Below are positions 10,123 through 60,917 of a DNA stretch of 64,000 nt, one piece after another. The stretch comes from Streptomyces sp. HUAS MG91 (lineage in GTDB: Bacteria; Actinomycetota; Actinomycetes; Streptomycetales; Streptomycetaceae). The notes below the pieces were generated by a model. The model searched no databases. It was not told where the DNA came from and saw only the letters and a list, made by a program, of their open reading frames with translations. The stretch's first letter is position 1. Each line of letters opens with the position of its first letter. The position numbers were made by a program, and so were the translations under genes. The stretch lies in assembly GCF_040529335.1 (NCBI RefSeq), contig NZ_CP159534.1:3224001-3288000 (forward strand). Direction: 5' to 3'.

Positions 10123-10187
10123 GCGGTCCTCCGGTTCGTGGGGCGCGGCGGGGGCCGGCGCCCTTCGAGATCGCGGGCTCACGGGCT

Positions 10188-10205
10188 TTGGTCCAGACCC
10201 GTTAT
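10188..10205. promoter_or_regulatory. Operator-like site 1, candidate GntR/HutC target
   Basis: TTGGTCCAGACCCGTTAT, containing the GGTC-NN-GACC half-palindrome typical of HutC-type GntR regulators (compare TGGTCTAGACCA-type sites of DasR and PhnF). It lies 66 bases upstream of the phosphatase start and matches two further copies at 10275-10292 and 14394-14411. The likely binder is the GntR protein encoded at 14477-15253. Confidence 0.7.
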
Positions 10206-10274
10206 CGAATGGTGATACTGCTGCCTGGTCGCACGGCTACGGGTCCGGCCCAACTCCCCCATTACACAGAGGTG

Positions 10275-10292
10275 TTGGACCAGACCCGTTAT
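10275..10292. promoter_or_regulatory. Operator-like site 2, candidate GntR/HutC target
   Basis: TTGGACCAGACCCGTTAT, identical to site 1 except for one base and in the same orientation. The two sites are 87 bases apart between the solute-binding gene and the phosphatase gene. The spacing could allow cooperative binding or looping. Confidence 0.7.
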
Positions 10293-10297
10293 CTTCT

Positions 10298-10335
10298 GGT
10301 GACGCGGACGCGAATGCCCATGGACATTCGTCACC
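10298..10335. terminator. Bulged hairpin after the solute-binding-protein gene
   Basis: GGTGACG (10298-10304) and GAATG (10312-10316) pair with CATTCGTCACC (10325-10335), leaving one bulge and a CCCATGGA loop. It starts 12 bases past the stop at 10347 on the minus strand. It probably terminates the importer transcript ahead of the separately controlled phosphatase gene. Confidence 0.55.
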
Positions 10336-10346
10336 GTCCGATGGAC

Positions 10347-11408: not shown

Positions 11409-11470
11409 GGCGAGGTGAACTCCATTGAGTGATACGAGGGTCAGCGGTACGGGGATCAGCAGGACGGGGA

Positions 11471-12268
11471 TCAGCGGTACGAGGCCTTGGTGCGGATCCG
11501 CGAGACGGCGAGCAGGACGAGCAGCGTCGCGGCCATCAGGACCACCGCGATCGCGGAACCGGTGAACAGCGAGCCGCGGTCGGTGGTCGCGTAGATCTGC
11601 ACCGGCAGCGGCATCCAGTCCGGCGGGTAGAGCATCATCGTGGCGCTCAACTCCCCCATGGACAGGGCGAAGCAGAGCCCCGCCGCCGCGTTCAGGGACG
11701 GCAGCAGCAGGGGCAGCTTCACCTTCCACAGGACGTACGCGGGCCGGGCGCCGAGCGACGCCGCGGCCTGTTCGTAGACCGGGTCGAGACGCACGATGGC
11801 GGCCGAGACCGACTGGTAGGCGAACGCCGTGACAAGAATCGTGTGCGCGATGATGACGATCCAGCGGGTGCCGTTGAGCAGCATCGGCGGCTTGCTGAAC
11901 GCGACGAGCACGGCGAGCCCGACCACGACGGACGGCACGGCGACGGGCAGCACGAACAGCGCGTCCATGGCCCGGCGCCCGCGCTTCTTGAGCGACGCGG
12001 CGGCCAGCGCGGCCCACCCTCCGGTCAGCAGCGCGAGCACGCTCGCCGTGACGGCGGTGACCAGGCTGGTGGTGAGCGCGGTGAGCGAGTCGCCGCTGGT
12101 GGCGGCGGAGTAGTGGCTCCCGGTGAACCCGGAGGGAAGCGCCCCGGACCAGTTGGTCGAGAAGGACGCGGCGACGATGACGAGGAGGGGCAGGGCGAAG
12201 AGGGGCAGGAAGAGGAGGAAGAAGAGCGCCCAGGTGGCCCACTTCCCCGGCTTGCTATGCACCAGCAC
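11471..12268 (-). CDS. ABC transporter permease, second subunit
   Basis: Integral membrane permease of the same importer, about six transmembrane helices over 265 residues. The binding-protein-dependent-transport EAA loop lies around EQAAASLGARPAYVLWKV, which docks on the ATPase. It begins at GTG 12268, preceded by AGGGGAG. The gap to the upstream permease (12355) is 86 bases and carries a repeat hairpin, so expression may be lowered relative to the first genes. The solute-binding gene follows 62 bases downstream. Confidence 0.88.
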   Translation of the reverse strand: MLVHSKPGKWATWALFFLLFLPLFALPLLVIVAASFSTNWSGALPSGFTGSHYSAATSGDSLTALTTSLVTAVTASVLALLTGGWAALAAASLKKRGRRAMDALFVLPVAVPSVVVGLAVLVAFSKPPMLLNGTRWIVIIAHTILVTAFAYQSVSAAIVRLDPVYEQAAASLGARPAYVLWKVKLPLLLPSLNAAAGLCFALSMGELSATMMLYPPDWMPLPVQIYATTDRGSLFTGSAIAVVLMAATLLVLLAVSRIRTKASYR

Positions 12269-46357: not shown

Positions 46358-46527
46358 GCGCGCAAGATAGATCGCGCAGGTCCAACTATCCAGAGCGAAG
46401 CCGCACCGGGTTCGCTCGTCGGCCCCGGCGCCCCGCGCGGGGCGCACGCCGCGCACAGTCGCGGCCGAAGGCCCCGCGCCCGATCCGGACGGTCCGTCCT
46501 GCGGATTCCGGCAGTACGGTGTCCCTC

Positions 46528-47565
46528 ATGCGCCCCGACACGCCTGCCACGCCCGCCGAGAACGACCGTGCCGACCACGTAGCGGAAGCCGAGCGTCTGG
46601 AACGCACGGCGGACATGTACCCCGAGGACGCGGAACCGCTGCTCCTCCAGGCCGCCGCCCACTACGAACTGGCCGACGACCGCGAGCGCGCCACGACCCT
46701 CTACGACGGCCTGCTCGCATCGCCGGACGTCCACGACCCGTCGCTGATCCGCGCCCTCAAGGCCGCGAACCTGTGGGAGTACGGCCACGAGGCGGAGGCC
46801 AACGCCATCATCACGGGCCTGCGCGCCACCGCTCCGCGCGACCCGGCGCCGTGGGTGATCGTCGCGGAGTCCCTGGAGCAGCACGACGAGCTGGAGCAGG
46901 CCCACGAGACGTTCACGGAGGCGCTGGAACTCCTGGTCCCGGCGTCGGAGCGGGAGTCGGGCGTGCCCCTCGCCAAGCACCCCCTCCTCCTGGGCCGGCA
47001 CCGCGTGCGCCGCCTCCTGGGCACCCCGCACGACGAGTGGGACGCCCTCGCCGACCAGGCCAACCGCACCCCGGTCGCCCTCGACGAACTCCACGACCCC
47101 AAGCGCCTGTGGTCCCTCGGCTCGGAGAACCCAGCAGAACTCCAGGCCGAGATCTCGCGCCTGCGCGCCGAGCTGGGCACCTACCGCGAGGCGCTGTCCC
47201 GCCCGTTCCCGGTGGCGGTCCTGCACTGGCCGTCGACGGAGTACGCGGAACTGATCGCGGCGTACCCGGCGCTGACCTCGGAATACCCCTCCTACGAGGC
47301 GCACTTGACGTCGATAGAGGGTTCGCTGAGGGAACTTTCCTCCTCCGGCACGGCGAACCTGGGCATCGTCACGGGCACGGTCCCGTCCTACGAGGCCTTC
47401 GCGGCATCGGAGGCCTCGTCCCCGAACGACACGTCGCTGCTACCGCAGTACGCGACGACGCTGGCGGCGCGGGGGCGGGCTGTTGCTTGGCCTCCGGCTT
47501 CTGATGCGGGGTGCTGGTGTGGGTCGGGGTCGGCGTACGGGGCTTGCCACGGAACCGGCGCCTGA
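46528..47565 (+). CDS. SEC-C metal-binding motif protein with TPR-like region
   Basis: 345-residue soluble protein. Residues about 15-130 form helical, TPR-like repeats (ADMYPEDAEPLLLQAAAHYELADD, quoted in part, and ALKAANLWEYGHEAEANAI). A central region of unknown fold follows. The extreme C terminus is a SEC-C zinc motif, CWCGSGSAYGACHG, as found at the end of SecA and in many solitary proteins. ATG 46528 is preferred over GTG 46519. It is divergent from the class E sortase operon, and vsr begins 49 bases downstream. Function unknown. Confidence 0.82.
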   Translation: MRPDTPATPAENDRADHVAEAERLERTADMYPEDAEPLLLQAAAHYELADDRERATTLYDGLLASPDVHDPSLIRALKAANLWEYGHEAEANAIITGLRATAPRDPAPWVIVAESLEQHDELEQAHETFTEALELLVPASERESGVPLAKHPLLLGRHRVRRLLGTPHDEWDALADQANRTPVALDELHDPKRLWSLGSENPAELQAEISRLRAELGTYREALSRPFPVAVLHWPSTEYAELIAAYPALTSEYPSYEAHLTSIEGSLRELSSSGTANLGIVTGTVPSYEAFAASEASSPNDTSLLPQYATTLAARGRAVAWPPASDAGCWCGSGSAYGACHGTGA

Positions 47566-47614: not shown

Positions 47615-48055
47615 GTGTCCCGCCCCGTCCCTTCCTCGGCCGCCGTCTCGGCCCGAATGCGCCGCCAGTCCTCCCGCGACACCGCGCCCGAGCTGGCAGT
47701 CCGCCGCCTCCTCCACGCGGCGGGCCTGCGCTACCGCCTGAACGTCCCGGTCCCCGGCATGAGCCGCCGCACCATTGACATCACCTTCGGCAAGGACAGA
47801 ATCGCGGTCTTCATGGACGGCTGCTTCTGGCACGGCTGCCCGCAGCACGCGACGAAACCGAAGGCCAACGCCGACTGGTGGCGAACCAAGCTCGACAAGA
47901 ACATGGCCCGCGACCGCGAGACCACCCGCCACCTGGAACAGGACGGCTGGACCGTGCTGCGGTTCTGGGAGCACGAGGATCCGGCGGACGTCGCGCGGGC
48001 CATCGCCGCCGCGCGGAACTCACAGCCCCGCACAAGTAGACCCAAGCAACAATGA
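47615..48055 (+). CDS. vsr: Very short patch repair endonuclease Vsr
   Basis: 146-residue T:G mismatch endonuclease. Vsr nicks next to T in T:G mispairs made by deamination of 5-methylcytosine, protecting hosts that carry cytosine methyltransferases. Family landmarks are intact: MRRQSSRDTAPELAVRRLLH, TIDITFGKDRIAVFMDGCFWHGC with the catalytic Asp and metal-binding residues, and DGWTVLRFWEHE near the C terminus. GTG 47615 gives the normal length. Two cytosine-methyltransferase homologues lie 5-6 kb downstream, and fragments of a MORC-like ATPase and of a second vsr follow immediately, so this gene marks the edge of a rearranged modification island. Confidence 0.92.
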   Translation: MSRPVPSSAAVSARMRRQSSRDTAPELAVRRLLHAAGLRYRLNVPVPGMSRRTIDITFGKDRIAVFMDGCFWHGCPQHATKPKANADWWRTKLDKNMARDRETTRHLEQDGWTVLRFWEHEDPADVARAIAAARNSQPRTSRPKQQ

Positions 48056-48134
48056 GGACTTAGGACCGCTGTCTGCATCACGCTCTGCCGTCACCACTGA
48101 TCGTACAAATTTGCTGTTATCACGAGGCAGGGCG

Positions 48135-48338
48135 GTGACCACGGGCTGGCAGCTCGGCGCGCCCACCACAGGGAACGGGCGCCTCCCACCCGATGTGCGA
48201 CGTACGGAAGCACTCAGCAGCCAGGGATGCAGCTTCAGAGTCGCCATCGACGACCTCGTCGCCAACTCAATCGACGCTGGCCCCGAGGACGCGATAATCC
48301 ACTCCCTTCGAGACATTGATGTTCTGGTCAGAACATGA
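48135..48338 (+). pseudogene. N-terminal remnant of a MORC-like GHKL ATPase
   Basis: A 67-residue open stretch beginning GTG 48135: GWQLGAP, LPPDVRRTEALSSQG, then SFRVAIDDLVANSIDAG, the N-box of GHKL ATPases (Asp-x-x-x-Asn-Ser-x-Asp-Ala), and IIHSLRD. Full-length relatives next to vsr genes run several hundred residues and continue into a DDG motif, which is lost here where the sequence switches to a vsr-like remnant near 48325. The original enzyme probably worked with Vsr and a Dcm in a defence module. Confidence 0.68.
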
Positions 48339-48487
48339 CGCGAGGCAAGGACACCACTCGGCGACTGACCGAGTGACCTTGGACCGTCCTGCGACTCTGC
48401 GAGCACGAACAGCGGGAGAGCATCGCCGAGCAAGAAACCGACGCCGCACTCCAGAACCTCAAATCGTCCGATGTCAGGGGTAGTTGA
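48329..48487 (+). pseudogene. C-terminal remnant of a second vsr gene
   Basis: Translation from about 48332 reads NMTRGKDTTRRLTE, a stop at 48374-48376, then PWTVLRLCEHEQRES in the same frame. The intact Vsr at 47615 has NMARDRETTRHLEQDGW then TVLRFWEHE at the corresponding place, so the match is residue by residue. The in-frame stop and the loss of the N-terminal two-thirds show that it is dead. It is fused directly to the MORC-like remnant. Confidence 0.72.
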
Positions 48488-49072: not shown

Positions 49073-51154
49073 ATGATCGAATTGACAGAGGACTTCAGCG
49101 CCTGGTTGAGCGGCTTGCTGGCCTCGCGCAGCATGAGCCAGAAGCAGCTCGCCGAACTGACCGGCGTCACGGCAGCCGCTGTCAACGGGTGGGTCAACGG
49201 CAGGTCGGAGCCTCGGTACGAAAAGATCGCGGCGATCGCCGAGGCCCTGGGCGTGGAGATCGAGGACGCAGTCAACAGGCGCGCGCCGGTCTCGCCGGCC
49301 CACGAGGCGTCGTGGGCATTCAGGCCGGCGCCGGAGGACGGCGGTCGTGAAGGCGGCAACACCGCAGCCTTCGCGTTCACGCCTAGTCTGAACGTGCTGG
49401 CGCGCGAGGCGACTCAGAACAGCCTCGACGAGAAGTGCGACGGTGACGAACCCGTTACCGTGCGCTACATATTGCACGAGCTCACGGGCGCCACCTTGCA
49501 GAACTTCCTGGACGCGGTGCAGTGGGATCAGCTGGAACCTCACTTGAGGGCAGCGTCAGACCCTCGACAGAAGGTCGGTCGAGTTCTGCTCGACGGGCTA
49601 AATGAATTGAAGCGAAGCGGTCGACTCGTGCTGCTCCGCGTGGACGACTACAACGCGTCCGGACTCACTGGCCCTGAGTACGAGGACGGCCGTTTCGCAC
49701 GTGTGGTCAGGCGCACCTTGGACAGCGGGAAGGCCGGCTCCGCAGGTGGCTCCTACGGCTTGGGAAAGGCCGCGCTGTGGGCAGCCAGTCGTTTCGGATT
49801 GGTGCTCGTAAGCAGCACCCTTTCGGTCCCCGAGGACGGACGCACCGAGCGACGTGTCACCGGACGCCTGGAGCTTCCCTGGCACCGGATGAGCGGTATG
49901 GACTACGCGGGTCCCGCATGGTTCGGAGTGGAGGCGCCAGGCCTTCAACACACCGCCAACTCCTGGTGGAGCGACAAGGATTCGACCAAGCGCCTCTATC
50001 TGGAGCGGGACGACGCACGACCCGGAACTTCGTTCCTCGTGGTCGGCGCCTACGACGGCTCGGGTGAAGCCGAGGAGCTCGACGAGATGCACGAGCGTCT
50101 GGTGTCGAGCCTCGCACGCAACTTCTGGGCCTCGATGGTGGGTGGCGAGTTCGAGAAGCCCAAGCTCCGTGCTTCCGTCAGCGCCTTCCGTAACGGCACA
50201 GTCGTGAAGCATGAGCAGGTGATCGACCCACATGTCTACGAGCCTACGCGCTCCCGAGCGGTGAAGGCCTTCCTGGACGGCACGACCGTCTCCGAGCTCA
50301 CCGACCGGTCGCAGGTTCTGGAGGCAGCGGTCCCACTCGGACTCAAGCGCCGGAAGGACGAGCCCAGCTCGATCGATCCTGGGGTTCACGAGGCTGTCCT
50401 GCTTGTGGCGATCGCCGATGAGCAGGACGCGAACCCCGATCAGATCTCCTACATGCGCGCCACCCGCATGGTGGTGAAGCAGAAGCGTGTCGGCGACCTG
50501 CCGCTCGGGCACCGTCCGTTCCAGGCAGTACTCCTCGCCGGTACCGCGACACGACGCGAGTCGCCCGACACCGAAGCGGCCGAGTTCATGTTGCGCACGG
50601 CCGAGCCGCCGGACCACAACGACTGGGTGAGCACAGAGGACCTCACCGCGACTTACGAGCGAGGTGCCCGCCAGAAGATCATCGACTTCAAGAAGGAAGC
50701 GGAACAGCGTGTACGTGAGGTCCTCCGCAACAGCGAGCAGGAAGAGCCACAACGCGAAGGGCCAGAAGTACTAAGAGACCTTCTACGTCTCGACCGTCCC
50801 CGACTACCACGCACTCAGGGTTACCCGACGGTTCAGGCCGTCGAGGGTCACGTGGACGACGAAGGAGCCTGGCGGGTCGCAGTGACGGTGAGGCTACCCA
50901 GACGCGAGGATCCCTGGCTCCTGACCGCTACGCCCATGTTCCTTTCCCGTTCGGGAGGAGCGGTCCCGGTGAAGTGGGAAGACGTCACCCCGGTCGAAGG
51001 CTGCTCCCTCACCTCGCAAGGGAATCTGGCCTTCGAGGAAGGGGCGACGCGCGGCAAATTCAGCGGAATCACCGATCCCGAAAGTCACCCGGTGAACGGA
51101 GCGATGTCTCAGATCTCGGTCGACGTGCGGCGCGCGAAGGAGTTCGACGCATGA
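49073..51154 (+). CDS. HTH (XRE)-GHKL ATPase fusion protein
   Basis: 693 residues. The N terminus (about 8-65) is a Cro/CI-type helix-turn-helix (SMSQKQLAELTGVTAAAVNGWVNGRSEP, quoted in part). The next domain (about 95-330) is a GHKL ATPase: N-box with Glu112, Asn116 and Asp119 in REATQNSLDE, a G1-like VDDYNASGL near 195, and the lid GGSYGLGK at 225-232. The rest resembles MORC/Hsp90-like transducer regions without a named match. ATG 49073 has GGAG close upstream. The stop overlaps the next gene (ATGA). GHKL ATPases of this kind are common in bacterial defence modules next to Dcm-type methyltransferases. The fused HTH suggests autoregulation or sequence-specific DNA loading. Confidence 0.8.
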   Translation: MIELTEDFSAWLSGLLASRSMSQKQLAELTGVTAAAVNGWVNGRSEPRYEKIAAIAEALGVEIEDAVNRRAPVSPAHEASWAFRPAPEDGGREGGNTAAFAFTPSLNVLAREATQNSLDEKCDGDEPVTVRYILHELTGATLQNFLDAVQWDQLEPHLRAASDPRQKVGRVLLDGLNELKRSGRLVLLRVDDYNASGLTGPEYEDGRFARVVRRTLDSGKAGSAGGSYGLGKAALWAASRFGLVLVSSTLSVPEDGRTERRVTGRLELPWHRMSGMDYAGPAWFGVEAPGLQHTANSWWSDKDSTKRLYLERDDARPGTSFLVVGAYDGSGEAEELDEMHERLVSSLARNFWASMVGGEFEKPKLRASVSAFRNGTVVKHEQVIDPHVYEPTRSRAVKAFLDGTTVSELTDRSQVLEAAVPLGLKRRKDEPSSIDPGVHEAVLLVAIADEQDANPDQISYMRATRMVVKQKRVGDLPLGHRPFQAVLLAGTATRRESPDTEAAEFMLRTAEPPDHNDWVSTEDLTATYERGARQKIIDFKKEAEQRVREVLRNSEQEEPQREGPEVLRDLLRLDRPRLPRTQGYPTVQAVEGHVDDEGAWRVAVTVRLPRREDPWLLTATPMFLSRSGGAVPVKWEDVTPVEGCSLTSQGNLAFEEGATRGKFSGITDPESHPVNGAMSQISVDVRRAKEFDA

Positions 51155-52131
51155 GAACTGCATTTCCCTACCCCGTACTCAGTAGCGACGTGAATCTCCG
51201 TGTGGAAAAAGTCTTCGTGGAGAACAAGCCGGTTCCCATCAGCCGGGTGAACGACCGCGATCAGATCGTTGCTCTGGATGATCTGGACACCGGAACGAAG
51301 GGCTGGGCTGAAGTCCGTCTGAACGTGTCCGCATCTGTCGACGCGCGCGAGTTGAGGGGTGGACCGTGGATCGGCATCTCGTGCATGGCGGTTCTCACCA
51401 ACCGGAAAACGAAAGTCCATCAGGCATTCGAACTGCGTGAGAGGGAGCCAGGATCCTGGGTTGGCGAGATCGAGATCCACCGGCTGGAACATGTAGAGCG
51501 AAGCCAGATCAACGCTCAGATCGTAGCGGAGTATGACGGTGTCCCGGGGCGACTCATTGGATTCACCGCACTTCCTTGGCAAGTCGACTTCGAGTCCCGA
51601 CGCCCGGTAGAAGAGCGCTCCCTCAAGATGAAGTGGCTCGACTTCGACGATCCCTCCAACGACCACCTCAAAGAATTCAAGGAAAGTCCTTGGCTTCTGG
51701 ATTTCGAGGGAGGAGAGCCGGTCCTGTGCCTCAACTCTTCTTTGGACGGTTTTCGAGGCGTACTCGAAAATGCCGCTACTCAGGAACAGAAACTTGTTCG
51801 CGAGGTCCTCTCTTCTCAGATTGCTTCGGAGACATGGATCTCTCTATTCAACTCCGCCGCATACAATTGCGAGGTCGTTGAGGGCGAACCGGTATGGCCC
51901 AGTGGATGGCAGGCAGACGTTCTGCGGAAAATGCTCCCGGATGTCTTCCCTGCTATGGGTGCCGACGAAGCCCTATCGATGCTTGTCGAGGCCCGCATCA
52001 ATGGCGAGGACGGAACGAATATCCAGCGCCTCGTCGCGCATGCAGCAGGAATCCAGTCCCGTAAATCTCGAAAGATTACGACCACGCTCCGGGACCTGCG
52101 CCGCATGGCGAACCAGAAGGGTGACAAGTAG
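51151..52131 (+). CDS. Unknown defence-operon protein
   Basis: 326 residues, no family recognised. The N-terminal half looks beta-rich (VNLRVEKVFVENKPVPISRV, IGISCMAVLTNRKTKVHQAF). A central WLDFDD...WLLDFEGGEPVLCLN stretch and a helical C-terminal half with LVREVLSSQIASETWISLFN follow. The C terminus is basic (SRKSRKITTTLRDLRRMANQ), perhaps nucleic-acid binding. ATG 51151 overlaps the HTH-GHKL gene stop by four bases and the next gene starts two bases after its stop, so it is an integral part of the operon. It has no transmembrane helix. It could be a nuclease-like or scaffold subunit, but no catalytic motif is evident. Confidence 0.7.
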   Translation: MRTAFPYPVLSSDVNLRVEKVFVENKPVPISRVNDRDQIVALDDLDTGTKGWAEVRLNVSASVDARELRGGPWIGISCMAVLTNRKTKVHQAFELREREPGSWVGEIEIHRLEHVERSQINAQIVAEYDGVPGRLIGFTALPWQVDFESRRPVEERSLKMKWLDFDDPSNDHLKEFKESPWLLDFEGGEPVLCLNSSLDGFRGVLENAATQEQKLVREVLSSQIASETWISLFNSAAYNCEVVEGEPVWPSGWQADVLRKMLPDVFPAMGADEALSMLVEARINGEDGTNIQRLVAHAAGIQSRKSRKITTTLRDLRRMANQKGDK

Positions 52132-52133
52132 AA

Positions 52134-52997
52134 ATGGCCAAGACGTTCGAATACCCCGACAAGATCGGAAGAATCTCGGACTCCGTGGCGAACAAGGCCG
52201 TCACTCGAAACCTGCTCGACGGAGGCCCACTTCCAATCGAGATGTTGGTGCGCGGATCGACTGAGACAACAGACGAATCGCCCCGATGGGAGGCTGCAGA
52301 GCTGCGGGGGTTGCTCGAAGAAGCCATGTCGCGTTTCCGTGATGATAAACCTTCTGCTTCCGATGCCTGGCTCGCCCCCCGCTTGCATTACACACTGCGC
52401 CTCACCAGGGCGGAGGCAGTCGACACCACGTTGTGGAACTTCATCGCACTGCGAGTTGCTCCAGATTTCGTGCGCTGGCGGTGGGGGAAAGTGAAGGACG
52501 GCCGACTGGTAGTCAGCCAAGCCGCTCGATTCAGCGGCCCCTGGTACAAGCAGAGTTTCTCCCTCCTGTGGTGGGCAGCGGAAATATTCCGAGACGGTGA
52601 AGACTATCGACCTGTCGAAAGTGCGTGCCGGAATCAGGACGTTCTCAACACAGCCCTTCGTCTCAATATCTGCCATCACCGGCCCACCGCTCAGGCCATG
52701 GTGGAGCTCATCGAGGACGGCACCATTCGCACTGGTCGCGAACTTAATGGACTGGTGCGTGCGGTCACCACTGCCGACAGCACCCTGGTGTATGAGCGAC
52801 TGGGGCCGGACCAGCCCAGGGACCATTCCATCCATCAGGAGTGGGTCGAGACTGGCCACCTGGACAGCGTTTACGACCCCGAACGAATCCCTACAGGCCC
52901 GATGGATGGATCAGTTCCGTATCGATCCGTCGAAGAGCTCTCGAAGCTATACAAGGAACTCTTCAAGGGCGCGCACGTAAGGGGCAAGAAGAACTGA
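52134..52997 (+). CDS. Unknown defence-operon protein, possibly DUF6339
   Basis: 287 residues, soluble. Features: WLAPRLHYTLRLTRAEAVD, a Trp-rich stretch FVRWRWGKVKDGRLVVSQAA, FSLLWWAAEIFRDGEDY, and a helical middle, with a basic end HVRGKKN. I recall DUF6339 annotations for such proteins beside actinobacterial cytosine methyltransferases, but this is unverified. It starts two bases after the previous stop and is followed after 94 bases by the methyltransferase pair. The aromatic and basic surface suggests nucleic-acid contact; that is inference. Confidence 0.65.
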   Translation: MAKTFEYPDKIGRISDSVANKAVTRNLLDGGPLPIEMLVRGSTETTDESPRWEAAELRGLLEEAMSRFRDDKPSASDAWLAPRLHYTLRLTRAEAVDTTLWNFIALRVAPDFVRWRWGKVKDGRLVVSQAARFSGPWYKQSFSLLWWAAEIFRDGEDYRPVESACRNQDVLNTALRLNICHHRPTAQAMVELIEDGTIRTGRELNGLVRAVTTADSTLVYERLGPDQPRDHSIHQEWVETGHLDSVYDPERIPTGPMDGSVPYRSVEELSKLYKELFKGAHVRGKKN

Positions 52998-53091
52998 GAC
53001 AATAGGTTGCAGAAACGTTCCCGGAAATAATTCCAGCGTCTCGATGATTTATCGAATTATTGATACGAGGAAGACGAAACAGGAGGATGAA

Positions 53092-54054
53092 ATGCGATTT
53101 GTTGACGTATGTTCAGGAGGCGGCGGACTTGCGCTGGGGTTGGAGCAAGCGGGCTTCACTCCAGCACTCTTGGTCGACAACAACAAGGACGCGTGCAATA
53201 CGCTTCGCGAGAACCGTCCGGAATGGAAGGTTCTCGAAGAAGATTTGCTTGATTTTGTTCCTGACGAGCACAAGGAGAGCTACGACGTCGATCTGCTGTC
53301 TGCTGGCCTTCCTCGCGTAAACGCAGTAACGGCCGCCAAGAAGGGGGAACTCTATGAAGAGGTAAAGCTACTGGAAGCCACTGCGCTTCTGGTTCACCCG
53401 CTCCGCCCCAAGGCTCTCCTGGTCGAGAACTCGCCGGACCTCGTGGAATCACCGAGATTCGAATCTGTAAGAGCCACGTTTCGTGAGGAGTTGGACCATC
53501 TCGGATATCGGTACAAGTGGTTCGTCCTCAATGCCGCCGACTTCGGAGTACCTCAGGACCGAAAGCAGGGCGTTCTGGTGGCGCTGAGGGAAGACTACTT
53601 CGGCAGCTTCCGACCTCCGGCTCCCACGGTGACATCGCACACATCTCTCGGAGAGGCCCTGCTGCCGTCGATGTCGTCCAAGGGGTGGCACGGCGCCGAA
53701 GATTGGGCTGCTCAAGCCACGAGCCTAGCGCCCACCCTGATCGGCGGATCCAAGAAACACGGCGGTGCCGACCTGGGACAGACCGGCTCGAAGCGTGCGT
53801 GGGCGCGCATGGGGATCTGTGGCCTGTCACTCGAGAACGACGTCCCCAAGCCCGACTTCGACTGGAGGCCCGGCAATGACGGCGAGGCCAGGCTCAGGAT
53901 CACCGTTGATCAAGCAGCCATCCTGCAGTCCTTCCCGCAGGAGTGGACGATCACAGGGAAGAAGACCGCTCGCTTCCGTCAGATCGCTCCGGCCTGCCCG
54001 CCTCCGGTCGGCAAGGCACTCGGAACTGCCATCGCCGCAGCCCTGAACGGCTGA
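53092..54054 (+). CDS. Cytosine-5 DNA methyltransferase homologue lacking the catalytic Cys
   Basis: 320 residues with the Dcm fold. The SAM-binding motif I is normal (FVDVCSGGGGLALGLEQAGF). Motif IV, which should read PCQ or PCP, is SAGLPRVNAV: Pro74 is followed by Arg75 instead of the nucleophilic Cys. Motif VI is VENSPD (ENV in active enzymes), motif VIII is GVPQDRKQG, and motif X is PPPVGKALGTAIA. The target-recognition region is short. It should bind DNA and perhaps SAM but not methylate. ATG 53092 is preferred over the upstream start because AGGAGG lies five bases before it. It precedes an intact methyltransferase and may act as its regulatory or recognition subunit. Confidence 0.85.
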   Translation: MRFVDVCSGGGGLALGLEQAGFTPALLVDNNKDACNTLRENRPEWKVLEEDLLDFVPDEHKESYDVDLLSAGLPRVNAVTAAKKGELYEEVKLLEATALLVHPLRPKALLVENSPDLVESPRFESVRATFREELDHLGYRYKWFVLNAADFGVPQDRKQGVLVALREDYFGSFRPPAPTVTSHTSLGEALLPSMSSKGWHGAEDWAAQATSLAPTLIGGSKKHGGADLGQTGSKRAWARMGICGLSLENDVPKPDFDWRPGNDGEARLRITVDQAAILQSFPQEWTITGKKTARFRQIAPACPPPVGKALGTAIAAALNG

Positions 54055-54136
54055 CGAGGTACCTCGACGGCCCCTTTCTGTCACAGGTTGACGGACGGGG
54101 CCGAGCACCGTGTCGCGCCGGCTACACTTCCTCCCC

Positions 54137-55234
54137 ATGACCAGCACTCAACAACACTCGCCCCGACCTGCAGATTTCCACATCGTGGACCTCTTTGCGG
54201 GACCTGGTGGCCTCGATGTGGCGGCTGACGTGCTGGGAGTGTCGACCGTTGGGATCGAATTCGATGCCAACGCCTGTGCAACTCGCAAACTGGCGGGGCT
54301 GTCGACCGTCCAAGGCGACGTTCGCAGTTCGGACCCTATTCACTTTCCTAGTGCCAACGTGCTTACCGGCGGACCTCCCTGTCAGACTTTCACTGTGGCG
54401 GGCAATGGTGCGGGACGTCGCGCGCTCGACGATGTACTGAAATTCGTTCAGCGAGTAGTTGACCGCGACGCTCCGCAGAATATTGATCTAGACCTTTCAG
54501 AAATGGAAGATGAACGGACCGGCCTGGTCCTGGAACCTCTTCGCTGGGCTCTGAAAGCCATCGATGATGAACGACTCTCACCTTACGAAGCAATCATTCT
54601 GGAACAGGTACCAGCAGTACTCCCCGTCTGGGAGGAGTACGCCAAGGCCCTCTTCAACGAGGGGTACTGGGCAACGACCGGGATGCTGCGCACGGAACAG
54701 TTCGGAGTTCCACAAACTCGACGTCGAGCCGTCCTCATCGCCTGCCGAAGAGATGGGCTGACCGGGCTCTCCGAAGAAGCCGTCGAGCTGCCGAAAGCCA
54801 CGCATCAGCCGTATCGAAAAGGTGAGGAGCGCTGGCCTTTCGGCTCCAAACCCGAGCCGTGGGTAACCATGGGCGATGTCCTGCCGCATCGCCCCAAGCC
54901 CTTTAAAGTGGTCTCCAACTACGGCACCGGTGGTGATCCGAAGGCCCGCGGAGAGCGCTACTCCTACCACCCTGCAGCCACGGTCACGGGGAAGATCTCT
55001 CGCAACAGGGTTGTGAAGGATGGAATCGATTTGGAACGCTTCTCAGCCTCCGAGGCAGGCCTGCTCCAGTCATTCCCTGCCGCATATCCTTGGGCTGGCG
55101 GGGACATCTCTCAACAGATCGGCAATGCAGTACCTCCCAAGCTGGCGCTGCATATCCTCAGTACGGCCTTGGGGTTCGGTGCTCCCACTAAGGCGACGCT
55201 CGAAAAGCTTGCCTCCTGGCAGCCGCCCGTCTGA
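54137..55234 (+). CDS. Cytosine-5 DNA methyltransferase with intact PCQ motif
   Basis: 365 residues. Motif I is VDLFAGPGGLDVAADVLG, motif IV is LTGGPPCQTFTVAG with the catalytic Cys82, motif VIII is FGVPQTRRRAVLIA and motif X is QIGNAVPPKLALHIL. Motif VI reads LEQVPA rather than the usual ENV, so the Asn that positions the cytosine region is Gln, a notable variant. A 40-residue insert (DVLKFVQRV to ERTGLVLE) lies after motif IV. ATG 54137 gives a family-like N terminus; no strong ribosome site is visible, and GTG 54110 is an alternative. It forms the catalytic half of the pair with the dead homologue 82 bases upstream. Its activity supplies the reason for a nearby Vsr. Confidence 0.88.
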   Translation: MTSTQQHSPRPADFHIVDLFAGPGGLDVAADVLGVSTVGIEFDANACATRKLAGLSTVQGDVRSSDPIHFPSANVLTGGPPCQTFTVAGNGAGRRALDDVLKFVQRVVDRDAPQNIDLDLSEMEDERTGLVLEPLRWALKAIDDERLSPYEAIILEQVPAVLPVWEEYAKALFNEGYWATTGMLRTEQFGVPQTRRRAVLIACRRDGLTGLSEEAVELPKATHQPYRKGEERWPFGSKPEPWVTMGDVLPHRPKPFKVVSNYGTGGDPKARGERYSYHPAATVTGKISRNRVVKDGIDLERFSASEAGLLQSFPAAYPWAGGDISQQIGNAVPPKLALHILSTALGFGAPTKATLEKLASWQPPV

Positions 55235-55523: not shown

Positions 55524-55563
55524 CCAAGATCGTTCTTGCTCAATTGGGCAAGAACGATCTTGG
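55524..55563. terminator. Strong terminator of the lanthipeptide operon
   Basis: A perfect 16-bp stem (CCAAGATCGTTCTTGC at 55524-55539 and its complement at 55548-55563) with loop TCAATTGG. On the minus strand it is followed by ATTGTTTTC, a real U-rich tail, so this is an intrinsic terminator 17 bases past the methyltransferase stop. Such low-GC hairpins are rare in the rest of the window. Confidence 0.88.
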
Positions 55564-55579: not shown

Positions 55580-56779
55580 TCAGTAGGTGAGCGTGAGCCG
55601 GCTCTCCGGCTTGCCGATCATGTGACCCGACAGACCTCCGGCCGCGTCGGCTGTCGGCGTGACGGTCAGTCGGGGAACCGCCGCACGGTCGGCGCTCCAC
55701 GCCTCGATGTGCGCGATCAGATCGTGGGCGAGCGCCTTTCCGTTCGTCCCGTATCCGGCCGCACCGAGCTGGAACGGACGCTCGAGATCAGCCCCTTCGC
55801 GGTGCACGGTCATGTAGGCGAGGGAGTCTCCCTCAACCAGCGCGGGGCTGCGGACCGGGATTGCAGGCCTGCGCACCAGACCCTTCTCCAGCGCCTCGGG
55901 GGTGACTTCCAGACGGCATACGCGATCGTCGCTCGCCGTGGCTCGCAGCCACACCCCGTCGAACGGCTCCTCACCGCCGACCCGACAGTCGGACAGGACC
56001 TCGTGAAGCGAGGCGTCCGCCAGGGTGTCGGTCAGCGCGTCTACGTCGACGTCCTGGTCCTCGTCGTAGTGGACGCGGATCGTGCTGTCGGTGTTGAGCG
56101 GCTCCGTCCTCTCACCGCTCTGCCCGATGATAGGGACGAAGCCGCACAGCTCCACTCCGTCTGAGACGAGGGAGTTGCCGCGACGGGTCAGGGCGACGGA
56201 GCGAGTCTGACCGCGCCACCGCAGGGGGAGCACGAGTCGGCCGCCGTCGGCCAACTGGTTCCACCAGGTCACCGGGATGTCCCAGACACCGACGGTGGCG
56301 ATGATCCGGTCGTACGGGGCGTTCTCCCACGCGCTGAGCAGGCCGTCGCGCTCGATGACCTTGACGCGTGAGTACCCCGCGGTGTTGAGGGTGGTCCTGG
56401 CGTGCAGGGCCACATCAGAATCGATGTCGACGGTAGTGACCCGTCCTGCGCCGACGAGTTCTGCAAGCAGCGCGGCGTTGTAGCCGGTGCCCGCGCCGAC
56501 CTCGAGGACGTTGTCGCCGGGCTGTGCATCGAGCTGAGCGAGCATCATCGCCACGATGGAGGGCACGGACGCGCAGGACAGGGCGAGCGGGCCGTCGGGG
56601 TTCTCCTTGATGGTCACGGCCTGGTCCGTGTACGCCTTCTCGAGCTCGAGGCCAGGGAGGAAGGCGTCACGGGGCACACGCCGCATCACCCGCTCCACCT
56701 CGGCGGGCAGACTCCGCCTGCTGAGAATCTCGTCGACGAGCCCGTTTCGCAGTTCGTCGGCCGTAGGGGTCTGGCTCAC
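55580..56779 (-). CDS. PIMT-like methyltransferase of the FxLD lanthipeptide system
   Basis: 399-residue SAM-dependent O-methyltransferase related to protein L-isoaspartate methyltransferase. The PIMT-like N domain has VMRRVPRDAFLP and KAYTDQAV. Motif I is NVLEVGAGTGYNAALLAEL. YDRIIATVGVWDIP and LADGGRLVLPLRW follow. The C-terminal 180 residues are an added domain typical of the FxLD class. Homologues methylate an Asp in the modified precursor, leading through a succinimide to isoaspartate. GTG 56779 gives a 14-base gap after lanC; a longer reading from 56821 overlaps lanC. It is the last gene of the operon, before a strong terminator. Confidence 0.88.
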   Translation of the reverse strand: MSQTPTADELRNGLVDEILSRRSLPAEVERVMRRVPRDAFLPGLELEKAYTDQAVTIKENPDGPLALSCASVPSIVAMMLAQLDAQPGDNVLEVGAGTGYNAALLAELVGAGRVTTVDIDSDVALHARTTLNTAGYSRVKVIERDGLLSAWENAPYDRIIATVGVWDIPVTWWNQLADGGRLVLPLRWRGQTRSVALTRRGNSLVSDGVELCGFVPIIGQSGERTEPLNTDSTIRVHYDEDQDVDVDALTDTLADASLHEVLSDCRVGGEEPFDGVWLRATASDDRVCRLEVTPEALEKGLVRRPAIPVRSPALVEGDSLAYMTVHREGADLERPFQLGAAGYGTNGKALAHDLIAHIEAWSADRAAVPRLTVTPTADAAGGLSGHMIGKPESRLTLTY

Positions 56780-56793
56780 AGTCGTGTTCGCTT

Positions 56794-57933
56794 TCAGTCG
56801 AGGAGGAGGCACGTCTCCCACCCGATGGGGCGGGTGGCGTCGATGGTGTGCAGCGTGAGGAGAACGCCGGCGTCACCGGAGAGCAGTCCGGCGTTCCCGG
56901 GTATCTCGTGGCCCACCAAGAAGTTGCTGAAGTGCGCGCGGAGCACTGGCAGATGTCGGTTGATCTCAGGAGTGACAGCGCTGGATCCGATCCGATCGAC
57001 GACCAAGAGGAATCCCGCCCACCCATGACAGACCGACATGTCCTCGAGCTGCCCTAACCGGCGGGCGTCCGTGATGACGTGGAACACGGCGTCTTCGGCG
57101 AGCTGTCGTGCCTGGTCGTCATGGATGGCCAGGGCAGCGAGTTGCAGGGCGCGGCCGATCCCGGGCGTCCCGTAACACCACGACGGGCGGCCTGGTTCCG
57201 TCTCTTCGGGCCTGGGGCCTTTCAGGTAGGCGTCCAAGGGAAGGAAGTCGGGCCAGTCGATGCCCCCGCTCTTGACGGGCTGCGCCCACTGCGTGAGGTG
57301 AGCGATGCCTTCGGCCAAGGCCTGGTTCTGCCCGGCAACGGTGCATCCGGCACGGTGGGCCAGGGCGAGCAGGGCGAGCGGGCCGGTGAAGCCGTGGGCG
57401 ATTCCGAAGTTGGCGTGACCGCGCAGGAACTGCCCGGTGCCGGGCGCGCCGTGCGGGTCGGTGGCTGCCCACCATCCGGGGACCTGGTGCCCGTCGATGG
57501 TGAGCGGTTCGGAGAACAGCCGTACCAGATAGCGAAGGATTCGTTGCAGGACGTCGTCGCGACCGCGGTGCAGGAGGTAGGCGCCGAGCCCCGTGAGGCC
57601 GCTGATCAGGTCGTACTCGCGCATGGGCGGCGGGGTCCGACCGTCCATGCGCTGCTGTGCCGCCTGGAGGCGGTCGACGACGATCGCGACGACTTCGGCG
57701 TCGAGTTCGGCCAGTGCCCGCGCGTAGGCCCGGTGGCCGGCGGTGTGCAGCACATAGGCGACAGCGGGCGCACCGCGGAAGAGGCTCGCGTGCTCCGGGT
57801 GGGCGGTGACGGGCTGGGCGTTGACGGCCTTCGCCGCAGCGTGGGCGGCCACCCAATCCCCTCCGGCTCGGGCGGCCACCACCTCGTACAGGGCAGTCCC
57901 GGCGAGGCCTGCGCCGAGGTCGTCGAGGCTCAT
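56794..57933 (-). CDS. lanC: Lanthionine synthetase C family protein (LanC)
   Basis: 379-residue zinc-dependent cyclase that adds Cys thiols to dehydroamino acids of the precursor. The alpha/alpha toroid is evident, and the zinc and acid ligands are present: His in GHANFGIAHGFTG, Cys in SWCYGTPG, and Cys-His in CHGWAGFLL. ATG 57933 overlaps the LanB stop by four bases, so dehydratase and cyclase are co-translated. The methyltransferase gene follows at once. Length is slightly short for LanC but complete. Confidence 0.92.
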   Translation of the reverse strand: MSLDDLGAGLAGTALYEVVAARAGGDWVAAHAAAKAVNAQPVTAHPEHASLFRGAPAVAYVLHTAGHRAYARALAELDAEVVAIVVDRLQAAQQRMDGRTPPPMREYDLISGLTGLGAYLLHRGRDDVLQRILRYLVRLFSEPLTIDGHQVPGWWAATDPHGAPGTGQFLRGHANFGIAHGFTGPLALLALAHRAGCTVAGQNQALAEGIAHLTQWAQPVKSGGIDWPDFLPLDAYLKGPRPEETEPGRPSWCYGTPGIGRALQLAALAIHDDQARQLAEDAVFHVITDARRLGQLEDMSVCHGWAGFLLVVDRIGSSAVTPEINRHLPVLRAHFSNFLVGHEIPGNAGLLSGDAGVLLTLHTIDATRPIGWETCLLLD

Positions 57934-60917
57934 GCCGACCTCCTCATGACCAGGGACCTACAGGTCTGACGTGCGGCATGACGGGACACGGCCTCGCTGC
58001 CCCGGTCGGGTCCCATCAGCCGGTTGTGGTGCATGTGCAGAAGCGATTCGAGGACCTGGTCCAGGTGGCTCTCCTCGATCAGGGCCCGGTATGTGCCCAG
58101 CGCGGCCCGCCTTTTCAGGAGGGCCCGGGCCACGCGCGGCGAGCCGTTGGACAGGGGGTCGGCGTCCACCTGGTCGAGTGCCTGCCTGGTGATTGCGCGG
58201 CGCCCCTTGCCGCCAGCTCGAACTTCTGCCATCCAGGTCAGTCCCTCGCGGCTGCCCAGGAAGCCCTGTGCAAGATCGATCATGCCGAACGCGCACGCCG
58301 TTTCTCGTTCGAGGCCGTGCACGTCGGCGAGGATGTGGGATGTGACGAGGCTGTCGGCGACGAACACGTCCTCGGCCGCGTCCATGGAGCTGTAGCGGCC
58401 CGTTTCGGGCCGGTAGCCGTCGAGGACGAGCTGGGAGGCGAGCCGGTCCGCGGTGAGCTGCCGCATCCAGCGTGAGAGCGTTCGTAAGGTGTCCGCAAAC
58501 CCGTCCGGCCCGCCGGTGGGCACCCGGAGCCGGAGGTGGTCGGTCTCCTGCAGCGATCGGTACCGCACATACCACGCCCGCGTGGTGCCGAGCTGTTCGA
58601 GCAGGCGGGGCAGCCGCTGGCCGATGATCTCGTCCATGGCGGTGGGGTGCGTGAAGACCTTCGCCTGCACCCACGGCTGTTCGGCGTCTCCGGGCTGCGC
58701 CAGGGTCTCGTTCGTCACTACGGGAGCGTGGGACAGGTCGGGGTGGGGCGCCGACGGCCGGGTCGAGGCGAGCGGGACGGTGATCTCGTGGGCGCGCCCG
58801 ATCCAGCCGAGGTCCTCATCGCTCGCCGTCTCCTGAAACAGGGCGCTCCCATGGCGCCGCAGGTGGTGGTGGACGAGGCGCGCATGGAGCGGCTCGGCCA
58901 GGTCCACGATCATGGTGCGGTCGTCGTCGACGAGATCGAGTCGGGGCGGACAACGCCAGTCGGCCGCCCAGTCGTTCAGCGCCTTGTGCCAACCGGGCCC
59001 GAACGGGCCGGACGGCAGCACCCCGGCGGAGAGCTTCCATCGGGCCGGGGCCAGGATGCTGCGGCCGTATCGGATACGCGGCAGGTAGGGCAGACCGGCA
59101 GCGGCCGGCCCCCAGTCGAACGCGGTCCAGGCCGTGGCGAATCCACGGCCGAGCATGGCCAAGAAGCGAGCCAGCGGTGGAGCCTGCTTCTCCAGAGCCA
59201 AGGGGTGGAACACATGGGGCTCCACAACGCGTCGTCGGCCCATACTGACCAGGTACAACTGCTTACCGGTGGAGAACACCGCAAGGTCATCGATCCCGAT
59301 CAGGCCCTCGCCTCCGTCGCGGGTCTCGCCCACAGCGATGACGTACGGCAGCAGGGCCGGGATACGGGCGACGTTCTGGGAGTGCGGGAAACAGGGCATG
59401 AAGGAGAGCTGTGCGGACAGCGCTCCCTCGGTCATGGTGGGCAGTGTCCTGTACGGGTCTGACAGTCGGCTCCCGAGTACGGTCGCGAAGCGGCCGGACA
59501 GGGTGCCGGTCGTCCACGCCGGCCGCACATCGAGTGTGAAGGCGCCCCTGCTCAAGGCTTCCTGGTCGGCAGCCCGGATTCTGAACCCGATCTCCACGTG
59601 CGGGGCGGTCGGTCCCTCCTGCTCGTCGTCGGCGAGTTCGTCGATGTCCGGGTCGGTGAGGACGATCTCGCGCTCACCCGTCATGGCGGCCTGCATGGCG
59701 AGGGCCGCGAGCTTCTCGTCGCGCGGCAGCACTTTGGGGGGCACATCGGTCCACACCGACATCGGGTAGTCGGCTGGAAGCCCGACGCCCGTCGCCAGGT
59801 CGACCGCATCACGGACCGGGACCAGAACTCCGGCGCCGTACCGCTCCCAAAAGTGGGTCTGGTAAGCGGCCCAGGCAGGTGAGTCCCCGCGGGTGCGGGT
59901 CAGGCGTACGAGGGCGTGAGCGGCACGCTCCACCTCGGCCAGGACCTCTCGGGGAACGCTGACCTTGGCGTCGAGACGCAGGTCGAGGCTGATCCGACTC
60001 CGGCAGTCAGCCGGTTGGAGGGCACGCATCCGAGCGTCGGTCGTCTCTCGGTGCCGGTGCGACTCCTTGAAGCCGGCGGCCTCATTGTGCAGGGCCAGAT
60101 GCAGCGTCACCATTCCCAACTGGTCGAGGATCTCGGCCGTCTCCGGTTCGAGCCTGTCCTGGTGGGGCTGCAGGGTGCGCAACATGTGGGCGACGGGATA
60201 CGGCACGGTCATCGGTGCTTCGAGGCTGCTGGTCAGATACCCGTCCTCGAGGGCCCGCACGACCAGGTGGCGAGCCTGCTCCGGCGTCCCGCCTGCCTTC
60301 TCGAGCACGTGCAAGAGACGGTGGCCCGCGATCGGTTCGGCCGCGGCATCCAGGAGAAGGGCGAGTGGGCGAGTGATCGGCGCAGTCGCCAGGCGTCCGC
60401 CCGCACGAGTCGTTCCGATGGTGTCCCCGCGCCGGAAGGCAAGGTTGTTGACCTGGACGGACAGGACCGGCAGGACGTCCGACCGCCCCTGCAGGTCCCT
60501 TCGTACGTGGTCCACCCACAGAGTGTCAGGTCGTGCGATGGGCTGATGGTCCGTGCCGAACGTTGCGGCAACCGGCCCGCACTCTGCCAGGGCGACACCA
60601 GCAAAGAGGCCGAAGGGCGTCGCCCTGGAAGCCGCGCGCAAGAGGTAGCCGGCCACGGACAAGGTCGCGGCGGCCACTCGCTTCGGCAGAAGGCCCGCAT
60701 CACGGCTGACGATCCGCTCCACGAATACGGCCAGGCGCGGAGACGCGGCGCGTACCGCAGCGACGAGGGCGGCATCGGTCCAAACGTGGGCGAGCCATTC
60801 GCGGCACTCTTCCGGCGAGGAGGCATCGGGCCAGCCCACTGGACGACGCACGGGCAGCGCCGCGGCCCGCAAGACCAGGACGTCACCATGCCTGCGGAAG
60901 AAGGGACGAGTCGTCAT
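57930..60917 (-). CDS. lanB: Lantibiotic dehydratase (full-length LanB)
   Basis: 995-residue class I dehydratase that glutamylates Ser/Thr of the precursor using Glu-tRNA and then eliminates glutamate. The N-terminal glutamylation domain (about 1-640; LVLRAAALPVRRPVGW, AATLSVAGYLLRAASRATPFGLF) is followed by a C-terminal SpaB_C-like elimination domain (about 700-970; WVQAKVFTHPTAMDEII, TTRAWYVRYRSLQETDHLRLR). A single chain of this length is a full LanB rather than a split thiopeptide-type enzyme. ATG 60917 lies 69 bases downstream of the precursor stop, after a strong hairpin. It is coupled to lanC through an ATGA overlap. Confidence 0.92.
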   Translation of the reverse strand: MTTRPFFRRHGDVLVLRAAALPVRRPVGWPDASSPEECREWLAHVWTDAALVAAVRAASPRLAVFVERIVSRDAGLLPKRVAAATLSVAGYLLRAASRATPFGLFAGVALAECGPVAATFGTDHQPIARPDTLWVDHVRRDLQGRSDVLPVLSVQVNNLAFRRGDTIGTTRAGGRLATAPITRPLALLLDAAAEPIAGHRLLHVLEKAGGTPEQARHLVVRALEDGYLTSSLEAPMTVPYPVAHMLRTLQPHQDRLEPETAEILDQLGMVTLHLALHNEAAGFKESHRHRETTDARMRALQPADCRSRISLDLRLDAKVSVPREVLAEVERAAHALVRLTRTRGDSPAWAAYQTHFWERYGAGVLVPVRDAVDLATGVGLPADYPMSVWTDVPPKVLPRDEKLAALAMQAAMTGEREIVLTDPDIDELADDEQEGPTAPHVEIGFRIRAADQEALSRGAFTLDVRPAWTTGTLSGRFATVLGSRLSDPYRTLPTMTEGALSAQLSFMPCFPHSQNVARIPALLPYVIAVGETRDGGEGLIGIDDLAVFSTGKQLYLVSMGRRRVVEPHVFHPLALEKQAPPLARFLAMLGRGFATAWTAFDWGPAAAGLPYLPRIRYGRSILAPARWKLSAGVLPSGPFGPGWHKALNDWAADWRCPPRLDLVDDDRTMIVDLAEPLHARLVHHHLRRHGSALFQETASDEDLGWIGRAHEITVPLASTRPSAPHPDLSHAPVVTNETLAQPGDAEQPWVQAKVFTHPTAMDEIIGQRLPRLLEQLGTTRAWYVRYRSLQETDHLRLRVPTGGPDGFADTLRTLSRWMRQLTADRLASQLVLDGYRPETGRYSSMDAAEDVFVADSLVTSHILADVHGLERETACAFGMIDLAQGFLGSREGLTWMAEVRAGGKGRRAITRQALDQVDADPLSNGSPRVARALLKRRAALGTYRALIEESHLDQVLESLLHMHHNRLMGPDRGSEAVSRHAARQTCRSLVMRRSA

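What the first reader, a model, noticed from the sequence alone, without database searches (positions are those of the whole stretch)
49073..55234. Candidate new defence module: HTH-GHKL ATPase, two unknown proteins, and a dead/live cytosine methyltransferase pair
Five genes on one strand, the first three overlapping or nearly so, in a region of lower GC beside vsr and broken relatives. GHKL ATPases with Dcm-type methyltransferases and Vsr are a recognised theme in predicted anti-phage islands. The specific combination here, with a fused HTH, two unassigned proteins and a catalytically dead methyltransferase, is not one I can name. A plausible logic is that methylation marks self DNA and the ATPase complex acts on unmarked DNA.
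Basis: partly seen in the sequence, partly recalled or inferred. Interest (0 to 1): 0.82.

Follow-up and report, generated by a model that had tools for sequence, protein, structure and literature searches.

The report
Dead methyltransferase guiding a defence module
Streptomyces and related soil bacteria carry a gene set in which a DNA-methylating enzyme has lost its catalytic residue but kept its DNA-reading part, which suggests a new way of telling foreign DNA from the cell's own.

Summary
P1 (HTH-GHKL ATPase, paraMORC2-like), P2 (Ig-like plus helical) and P3 (DUF6339, no known fold) are adjacent in 127 of 127 distinct actinomycete loci; 119 also have M1 plus a live methyltransferase. M1 is not simply decayed. 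Its catalytic Cys is Arg in 113, Ser in 7 and Pro in 1 of 121 proteins. Its recognition segment averages 66-69% identity to GCCGGC-family methyltransferases, against 25-26% in the catalytic loop and 43-45% elsewhere. In the loci read through M1, live family members lie beside NaeI/NgoMIV nucleases (25 of 28); dead ones never do (0 of 30) but lie beside GHKL genes (27) or a sacsin-type helicase (3). In 17 genomes M1 is fused to DUF6339. GCCGGC sits at the live enzyme's promoter in 54 of 87 loci, window included. Best reading: M1 is the sequence reader of a methylation-directed defence module; the live enzyme marks self, Vsr repairs deaminated 5mC, P1-P3 act. The effector chemistry is unknown and nothing has been tested at the bench. 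P1 and P3 match PADLOC's candidate PDC-M33.

The parts
47615..48055 (+). vsr: very short patch repair endonuclease, likely T:G repair companion of the 5mC methyltransferase
   Evidence: TIGR00632 E 2e-33, Pfam Vsr E 6e-17; a vsr lies within the fetched flank in 87 of 127 distinct relatives; GTG start read
48093..48314 (+). relic of an MzaB-type GHKL ATPase (fragment only)
   Evidence: tblastn of the L233 MzaB homologue, 53% over 74 aa, E 9e-18
48329..48427 (+). relic of a second vsr (fragment only)
   Evidence: tblastn 48% over 33 aa, E 4e-5
49073..51154 (+). P1: HTH plus GHKL ATPase of paraMORC2 type, predicted motor
   Evidence: HTH_3 E 3e-12; PDC-M33A E 2e-22; GHKL motifs and ExxxH (E511, H515) invariant in 15 of 15 aligned
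51151..52131 (+). P2: N-terminal Ig-like beta sandwich plus alpha-helical C-terminal domain, function unknown
52134..52997 (+). P3: DUF6339 protein, all-helical, no known fold found; fused to M1 in 17 other genomes
   Evidence: PF19866 E 3e-8; PDC-M33C E 3e-5; pLDDT 94.6; no Foldseek match at E<=0.001; fusion
53092..54054 (+). M1: catalytically dead C5-cytosine methyltransferase of the NaeI/NgoMIV (GCCGGC) family with recognition segment kept; predicted site reader
   Evidence: GLPRV at motif IV; R, S or P in 121 of 121 distinct M1; recognition segment 73-80% identical to three live relatives, catalytic loop 24%
54117..54122 (+). GCCGGC site abutting the -10 of the M2 promoter
   Evidence: same fixed position (-20 from the start codon) in 49 of 89 M2 upstreams; 54 of 87 loci with a looser pattern
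54123..54128 (+). -10-like element TACACT of a probably leaderless M2 promoter
   Evidence: TA.ACT conserved with GCCGGC while little else upstream is
54137..55234 (+). M2: live C5-cytosine methyltransferase (GGPPCQ, EQV), predicted self-marking enzyme
   Evidence: DNA_methylase E 1e-25; PPCQ and LEQV conserved in the 51-row alignment

Best explanation
[not shown]
For: Conservation: P1-P2-P3 127 of 127, plus M1 and a live partner 119 of 127. Dead residue: R 113, S 7, P 1, C 0 of 121 distinct M1, against C in 3 live outgroup rows; the 121 form one side of the tree (SH-aLRT 100). Recognition segment above the rest of the protein in 121 of 121, catalytic loop below it in 109 of 121. In loci read through M1: dead with a GHKL gene 27 of 30 and a sacsin-type helicase in the other 3, NaeI/NgoMIV nuclease 0 of 30; live relatives nuclease 25 of 28, GHKL 1 of 28. 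DUF6339::M1 fusions in 17 of 295 Streptomyces genomes, all Arg-type. Live partner replaced (M2 versus Malt) 7 times on the tree, at least 5 forced by starred branches, while M1 stays. GCCGGC at M2 in 54 of 87 loci, elsewhere 3 times in 2.39 Mb. NgoMIV cuts G|CCGGC (PMC4081073, passage).
Confidence: 0.62

Rival explanations
1. M1 is a dedicated methylation-sensitive repressor of the live methyltransferase, like the regulatory domains of M.EcoRII or M.SsoII, and is not part of the effector.
For: GCCGGC at exactly -20 of M2 in 49 of 89 upstreams, abutting the -10; 54 of the 60 rows of one M1 clade keep it. Precedents in PMC12707154 (passages).
Against: The site is absent in 33 of 87 M2 loci and in 31 of 34 Malt loci and in all 17 fusion loci, where M1 is nevertheless dead and conserved; the DUF6339::M1 fusion points to the effector.
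Confidence: 0.15
2. M1 and the live enzyme form a heterodimeric methyltransferase in which M1 gives specificity, comparable to DNMT3L with DNMT3A (recalled).
For: M1 and a live partner occur together in 119 of 127 loci, usually as neighbours.
Against: The live partner belongs to two families only about 27% alike that replace one another 7 times on the tree, an unlikely swap for a fixed dimer; M2-type enzymes stand without an annotated second cytosine methyltransferase in the two plasmid stretches read; M1 can be fused to DUF6339.
Confidence: 0.1
3. The window copy is a decayed remnant: the working system is Mza or sacsin-helicase plus P1-P3, and without that partner the five genes are only a self-marking and regulatory leftover.
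Against: All five genes are open and intact; 16 of 127 relatives (18 by the stricter count) also show neither partner in the fetched flank, among them L125 and L126 with 9 kb fetched on each side and P1 71% identical.
Confidence: 0.3
4. Ordinary R-M neighbourhood: independent genes collected in a defence island beside the conserved SEC-C gene.
For: A relative of the SEC-C gene lies near many of these loci, which fits an insertion hot spot.
Against: Fixed order of P1-P2-P3 in 127 of 127, the fusion, the shared dead state and the dead/live split by neighbourhood.
Confidence: 0.05

Closest known systems
PADLOC candidate PDC-M33 (models A and C, PADLOC-DB 2.0.0)
   Same: GHKL protein (A) and DUF6339 protein (C) match P1 and P3; haloarchaeal and cyanobacterial triads match better
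   Different: No PADLOC model matched P2; the library gives no description of PDC-M33; no test in print was found (full-text search for PDC-M33: 0 papers)
MORC/paraMORC restriction-modification neighbourhoods (Iyer, Abhiman and Aravind 2008, PMC2292703; passages and section 5 seen)
   Same: GHKL+S5 ATPases beside cytosine methylases and Vsr; paraMORC2 is said to be predominant in cyanobacteria and Gram-positives, with a strongly conserved ExxxH motif, which P1 has
   Different: The parts seen do not mention a catalytically dead methylase or a DUF6339 fusion
[not shown]
   Same: MzaB and MzaC homologues lie in the fetched flank of 42 of 127 module loci and DUF4420 in 25; L237 and L241 hold both sets around one M1/live pair; called a validated system in PMC9523054 (section 11)
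NaeI/NgoMIV type II restriction-modification
   Same: M1 belongs to the same methyltransferase family with a similar recognition segment; Vsr is often nearby
   Different: No NaeI/NgoMIV nuclease match in any of the 127 module loci; M1 lacks the catalytic Cys
Druantia type II DruM (PADLOC DruM2)
   Same: best PADLOC profile for M1, 288 bits
   Different: other Druantia proteins were not sought as a set; M1 is dead

Membership tests
PDC-M33 (PADLOC candidate) | PDC-M33A GHKL protein | tested here: met
   P1 E 2.2e-22, residues 88-248 only
PDC-M33 (PADLOC candidate) | PDC-M33C DUF6339 protein | tested here: met
   P3 E 3.4e-5
PDC-M33 (PADLOC candidate) | further subunit(s), and PADLOC's rule for calling the system | tested here: inconclusive
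   No PADLOC model matched the P2 position in the window, Halomicrobium or Synechococcus; the system rule is not held here
paraMORC2 | GHKL ATP-binding motifs intact | tested here: met
   E112, N116, D119, D192, G225-K232, G318-S320 invariant in 15 of 15
[quoted passage not shown]
   E511 and H515 invariant in 15 of 15, including an archaeal and a cyanobacterial row; definition from PMC2292703 section 5; that it lies in an S5 domain was not tested
paraMORC2 | S5-fold domain after the GHKL domain | not tested
   P1 structure not predicted
[not shown]
   [not shown]
Mza | MzaB GHKL protein | tested here: not met
   In the window only a 74-aa relic at 48093-48314; the rest of the genome was not searched for MzaB
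Mza | MzaD DUF4420 protein | tested here: inconclusive
   No match in the genome, but the family rang in no control genome either
NaeI/NgoMIV type II R-M | catalytically active GCCGGC methyltransferase | tested here: not met
   Arg at the catalytic position of M1
NaeI/NgoMIV type II R-M | cognate restriction endonuclease | tested here: not met
   0 of 127 module loci; tblastn of a NaeI- and a NgoMIV-family enzyme found none in the window
NaeI/NgoMIV type II R-M | GCCGGC recognition segment | tested here: met
   73-80% identity over 30 residues; binding itself not testable here
Druantia type II | DruM plus DruE, DruF and DruG | not tested
   only the DruM2 profile match of M1 is known; the rest of the composition is recalled
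anti-phage defence system | protection against phage | not testable with these tools

The most novel reading that the evidence does not exclude
Actinomycetes have turned a restriction-modification methyltransferase into a stand-alone, nuclease-free DNA reader: a catalytically dead GCCGGC methyltransferase is the shared targeting subunit of several GHKL-type effectors (P1-P2-P3, the DUF6339 fusion type, Mza, sacsin-helicase), while either of two unrelated live methyltransferases supplies the self mark. Restriction would then be programmed by a pseudoenzyme, and the same reader would sense how completely the cell's own sites are methylated.
Probability: 0.45. Interest if true: 0.92.

Novelty: new variant of a known kind. 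Interest (0 to 1): 0.8.

Why it matters
If right, it shows how a restriction-modification system can drop its nuclease and recruit its own methyltransferase, made dead, as the sequence-specific sensor of an ATPase effector. It gives the poorly understood GHKL/MORC-type bacterial systems a predicted target sequence (GCCGGC) and a reader, so their mechanism becomes testable with ordinary phages: phiC31 (2 sites) against phiBT1, R4, VWB or SASD1 (46-112 sites). It may also bear on why eukaryotic MORC ATPases act in methylation-linked silencing, and it offers a natural set of conserved dead methyltransferases for binding studies.

Tried and rejected

Corrections to my own counts: a pattern search mis-read motif IV of L248, L261 and L264; one search shows all three are live (GVPCP), and they have a NaeI match, so the figures 30 dead and 28 live use the corrected reading. 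One search's 'GHKL 30' includes L234, L242 and L249, where the match is to the sacsin-type helicase; in L242 and L249 only its C-terminal part lies in the fetched stretch, hence 27 plus 3. Left out of that count: L274 (36.8% identity, below my filter, live), L276 (a 10-base filler region that I asked for needlessly) and L236 (short copy of L237). These loci were not a random sample: L216-L232 were picked as fusions, L233-L235 as M1-family hits without P3, L257-L275 mostly from the 40-44% identity group, and L237-L256 are 20 regions (21 of the 40 rows); four further rows were already held or fetched later and 15 lower rows were not read. Within L237-L256 alone: dead 10, all with P1-P3, Mza or sacsin-helicase genes and none with a nuclease match; live 10, 9 with a nuclease match. 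Of 65 genomes with a strong P3 match (E<=7.3e-64), 60 regions besides the window were fetched; G051, G070, G073 and G171 were not.
Full report
WHAT IS THERE. The window (G000, contig C1, 3224001-3288000; its nearest kin by name are Streptomyces) holds five intact genes on the + strand: P1 49073-51154, P2 51151-52131, P3 52134-52997, M1 (probable start 53092) to 54054, and M2 (probable start 54137) to 55234. The module has GC 0.608, the rest of the window 0.716. P1 has an N-terminal HTH (E 3e-12) and GHKL motifs; P3 is DUF6339 (E 3e-8); M1 and M2 are C5-cytosine methyltransferases. A vsr gene lies upstream, followed by two relics: a piece of an MzaB-type GHKL ATPase (48093-48314, 53% over 74 aa) and a second vsr piece.

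CONSERVATION. P3 has a strong relative (E<=7.3e-64) in 65 of 295 genomes of the window's genus, and any match at E<=0.001 in 86 of 295. Sixty of these regions were read, and P1, P2 and P3 are side by side in all 60. A scan of the 84,980 species genomes with a P1 alignment found 255 relatives and kept the best 80, whose record titles are of actinomycetes. Pooled (140 loci) and reduced to 127 distinct loci (P1 under 97% identical), P1-P2-P3 occur in 127, M1 in 120, M1 plus a live methyltransferase in 119, and vsr in 87 within the flank fetched. The live partner is of M2 type in 88 loci and of an unrelated type, here called Malt, in 34 (about 27% identity between the types). The usual layout has M1 on the strand opposite to P1 (107 of 120); the window is one of the minority.

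THE DEAD METHYLTRANSFERASE IS A TRAIT, NOT AN ACCIDENT. At the catalytic Cys, 121 distinct M1 proteins (window included) have Arg (113), Ser (7, one clade) or Pro (1, L078, a disrupted gene) and never Cys; they lie together on one side of the branch to three live outgroup proteins (SH-aLRT 100). Two different dead residues in two clades suggest selection for inactivity. Three of the closest live relatives found on named records (about 42% identity) are methyltransferases next to NgoMIV- or NaeI-family endonucleases. The NgoMIV site is G|CCGGC (PMC4081073, passage); that NaeI shares it is recalled. A 30-residue recognition segment (LAPTLIGGSKKHGGADLG...) is on average 66-69% identical between M1 and the three live proteins (window 73-80%), the catalytic loop 25-26%, the rest 43-45%; between two live enzymes the same three figures are 93, 80 and 51. 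The reading part was kept and the chemistry was lost.

NEIGHBOURHOOD SPLITS WITH THE CATALYTIC RESIDUE. In 58 loci read through M1, dead proteins have a GHKL gene (P1, fusion-type GHKL or MzaB) in 27 of 30 and a sacsin-type helicase in the other 3, and a NaeI/NgoMIV nuclease in 0 of 30; live proteins have the nuclease in 25 of 28 and a GHKL gene in 1 of 28 (corrected by 120 and 128). At least five of the dead loci overlap the P1-selected set. In the 20 regions taken from a class-wide search by M1 similarity alone (21 of 40 rows), dead is 10 of 10 with P1-P3, Mza or sacsin-helicase genes and no nuclease match, and live 9 of 10 with a nuclease match. The dead protein occurs with P1-P2-P3, with Mza genes (L233; both together in L237 and L241) and with a sacsin-like helicase (L234, L242, L249). 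In 111 of the 127 module loci Mza or sacsin-helicase genes lie within the fetched flank (109 if the N-terminal part of the sacsin-helicase is required). MzaC and MzaB homologues of L233 were identified by PADLOC (1e-60, 3e-34), the DUF4420/MzaD protein by Pfam (5e-41), and the sacsin-helicase by Pfam SACS and helicase domains.

THE SITE IN THE PROMOTER. GCCGGC lies exactly 20 bases before the M2 start codon, abutting a TA.ACT -10 element, in 49 of 89 upstreams including the window (54117-54122), while little else upstream is conserved. With a looser pattern it is found beside M2 in 54 of 87 loci and only 3 times elsewhere in 2.39 Mb read on both strands. On the M1 tree it is kept in 54 of 60 rows of one clade, so it is one origin well kept, not many origins. 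It is absent at 31 of 34 Malt loci and in the 17 fusion loci. The site predicted from M1's family and the site conserved at the promoter are the same hexamer. Known parallels are CfrBI (promoter methylation) and M.EcoRII, whose catalytically inactive mutant still represses its gene if another enzyme has methylated the sites (PMC12707154, passages).

WHAT THE OTHER PROTEINS ARE. P1 has the ExxxH motif (E511, H515, invariant in 15 of 15 rows, including Halomicrobium and Synechococcus) that section 5 of PMC2292703 gives for paraMORC2. P3 is predicted with high confidence (pLDDT 94.6) as an all-helical protein without a PDB match at E<=0.001. P2 (pLDDT 93.8) has an Ig-like sandwich and a helical C-terminal domain. 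None of the three shows a nuclease family in Pfam, PADLOC or NCBIfam. Outside actinomycetes, GHKL, an unknown protein and DUF6339 occur in this order on two haloarchaeal plasmids and one cyanobacterial plasmid with a live Dcm in the stretch read. A HhH-GPD glycosylase gene (Halomicrobium, Pfam E 5e-16) or a C-terminal part that looks like such a glycosylase (Synechococcus, my reading, no Pfam match) goes with the Dcm as Vsr does here, which suggests that Vsr is a repair companion and not the effector; in Haloplanus none was seen annotated.

HOW IT MOST LIKELY WORKS. M1 reads unmethylated GCCGGC, the GHKL complex acts there, and the live enzyme marks the host. Shown: dead catalysis by sequence, kept recognition segment, conserved company, fusion, conserved promoter site. 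Inferred: binding, dependence on methylation, complex formation, the nature of the action, protection from phage.

NOVELTY. The kind is known: GHKL-methylase-Vsr systems (2008), Mza, and the PADLOC candidate PDC-M33. The conserved dead methyltransferase as reader, its fusion to DUF6339 and its sharing between several effectors were not found described in the searches made. I therefore rate it a new variant of a known kind with high interest.

Noticed in passing
L235 and L258 (unnamed Streptomyces genomes): A live M1-family enzyme (GVPCTPY) lies beside a live Malt enzyme and vsr without a NaeI/NgoMIV match; L235 also has a 652-aa protein without a Pfam or PADLOC match. Possibly a restriction-modification system with an undescribed nuclease.
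   Followed up: partly
L122 (Halomicrobium urmianum plasmid), L123 (Synechococcus elongatus plasmid): The GHKL-unknown-DUF6339 triad goes with a live Dcm and a HhH-GPD glycosylase (separate in L122; a C-terminal extension that looks like one in L123) in place of Vsr.
   Followed up: partly
L124 (Haloplanus sp. plasmid) 9989-11970: The GHKL gene of the triad is annotated as two open frames, apparently broken.
   Followed up: no
window 55524-55563: Perfect inverted repeat with 16-base arms and an 8-base loop between the module and the convergent PCMT gene; looks like a terminator hairpin.
   Followed up: no
window 55580-60917, - strand: PCMT-type O-methyltransferase next to genes that look like LanC and a LanB-type dehydratase (the latter two recalled from sequence look, not searched): a probable lanthipeptide cluster.
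   Followed up: no
window 46519-47565 and many relatives: A SEC-C/TPR-like gene flanks vsr and the defence genes in many Streptomyces loci: a probable defence-island insertion hot spot.
   Followed up: partly
L210 (phage phiC31): GCCGGC is strongly avoided in phiC31 (2 seen, 47 expected) but not in its relative phiBT1 (46 seen, 48 expected); CTCGAG is absent from both.
   Followed up: partly
module loci upstream of P1: GCCGGC is depleted in the 180 bases around the P1 start (7 seen, 31.5 expected over 127 loci); may reflect base composition only.
   Followed up: no
Planotetraspora, Herbidospora, Nonomuraea, Streptosporangium and a Streptosporangiaceae locus (L133, L135, L137, L140, L141, L159, L198): M1 has Ser instead of Arg at the catalytic position, a second dead solution in one clade; L249 also shows Ser.
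   Followed up: yes
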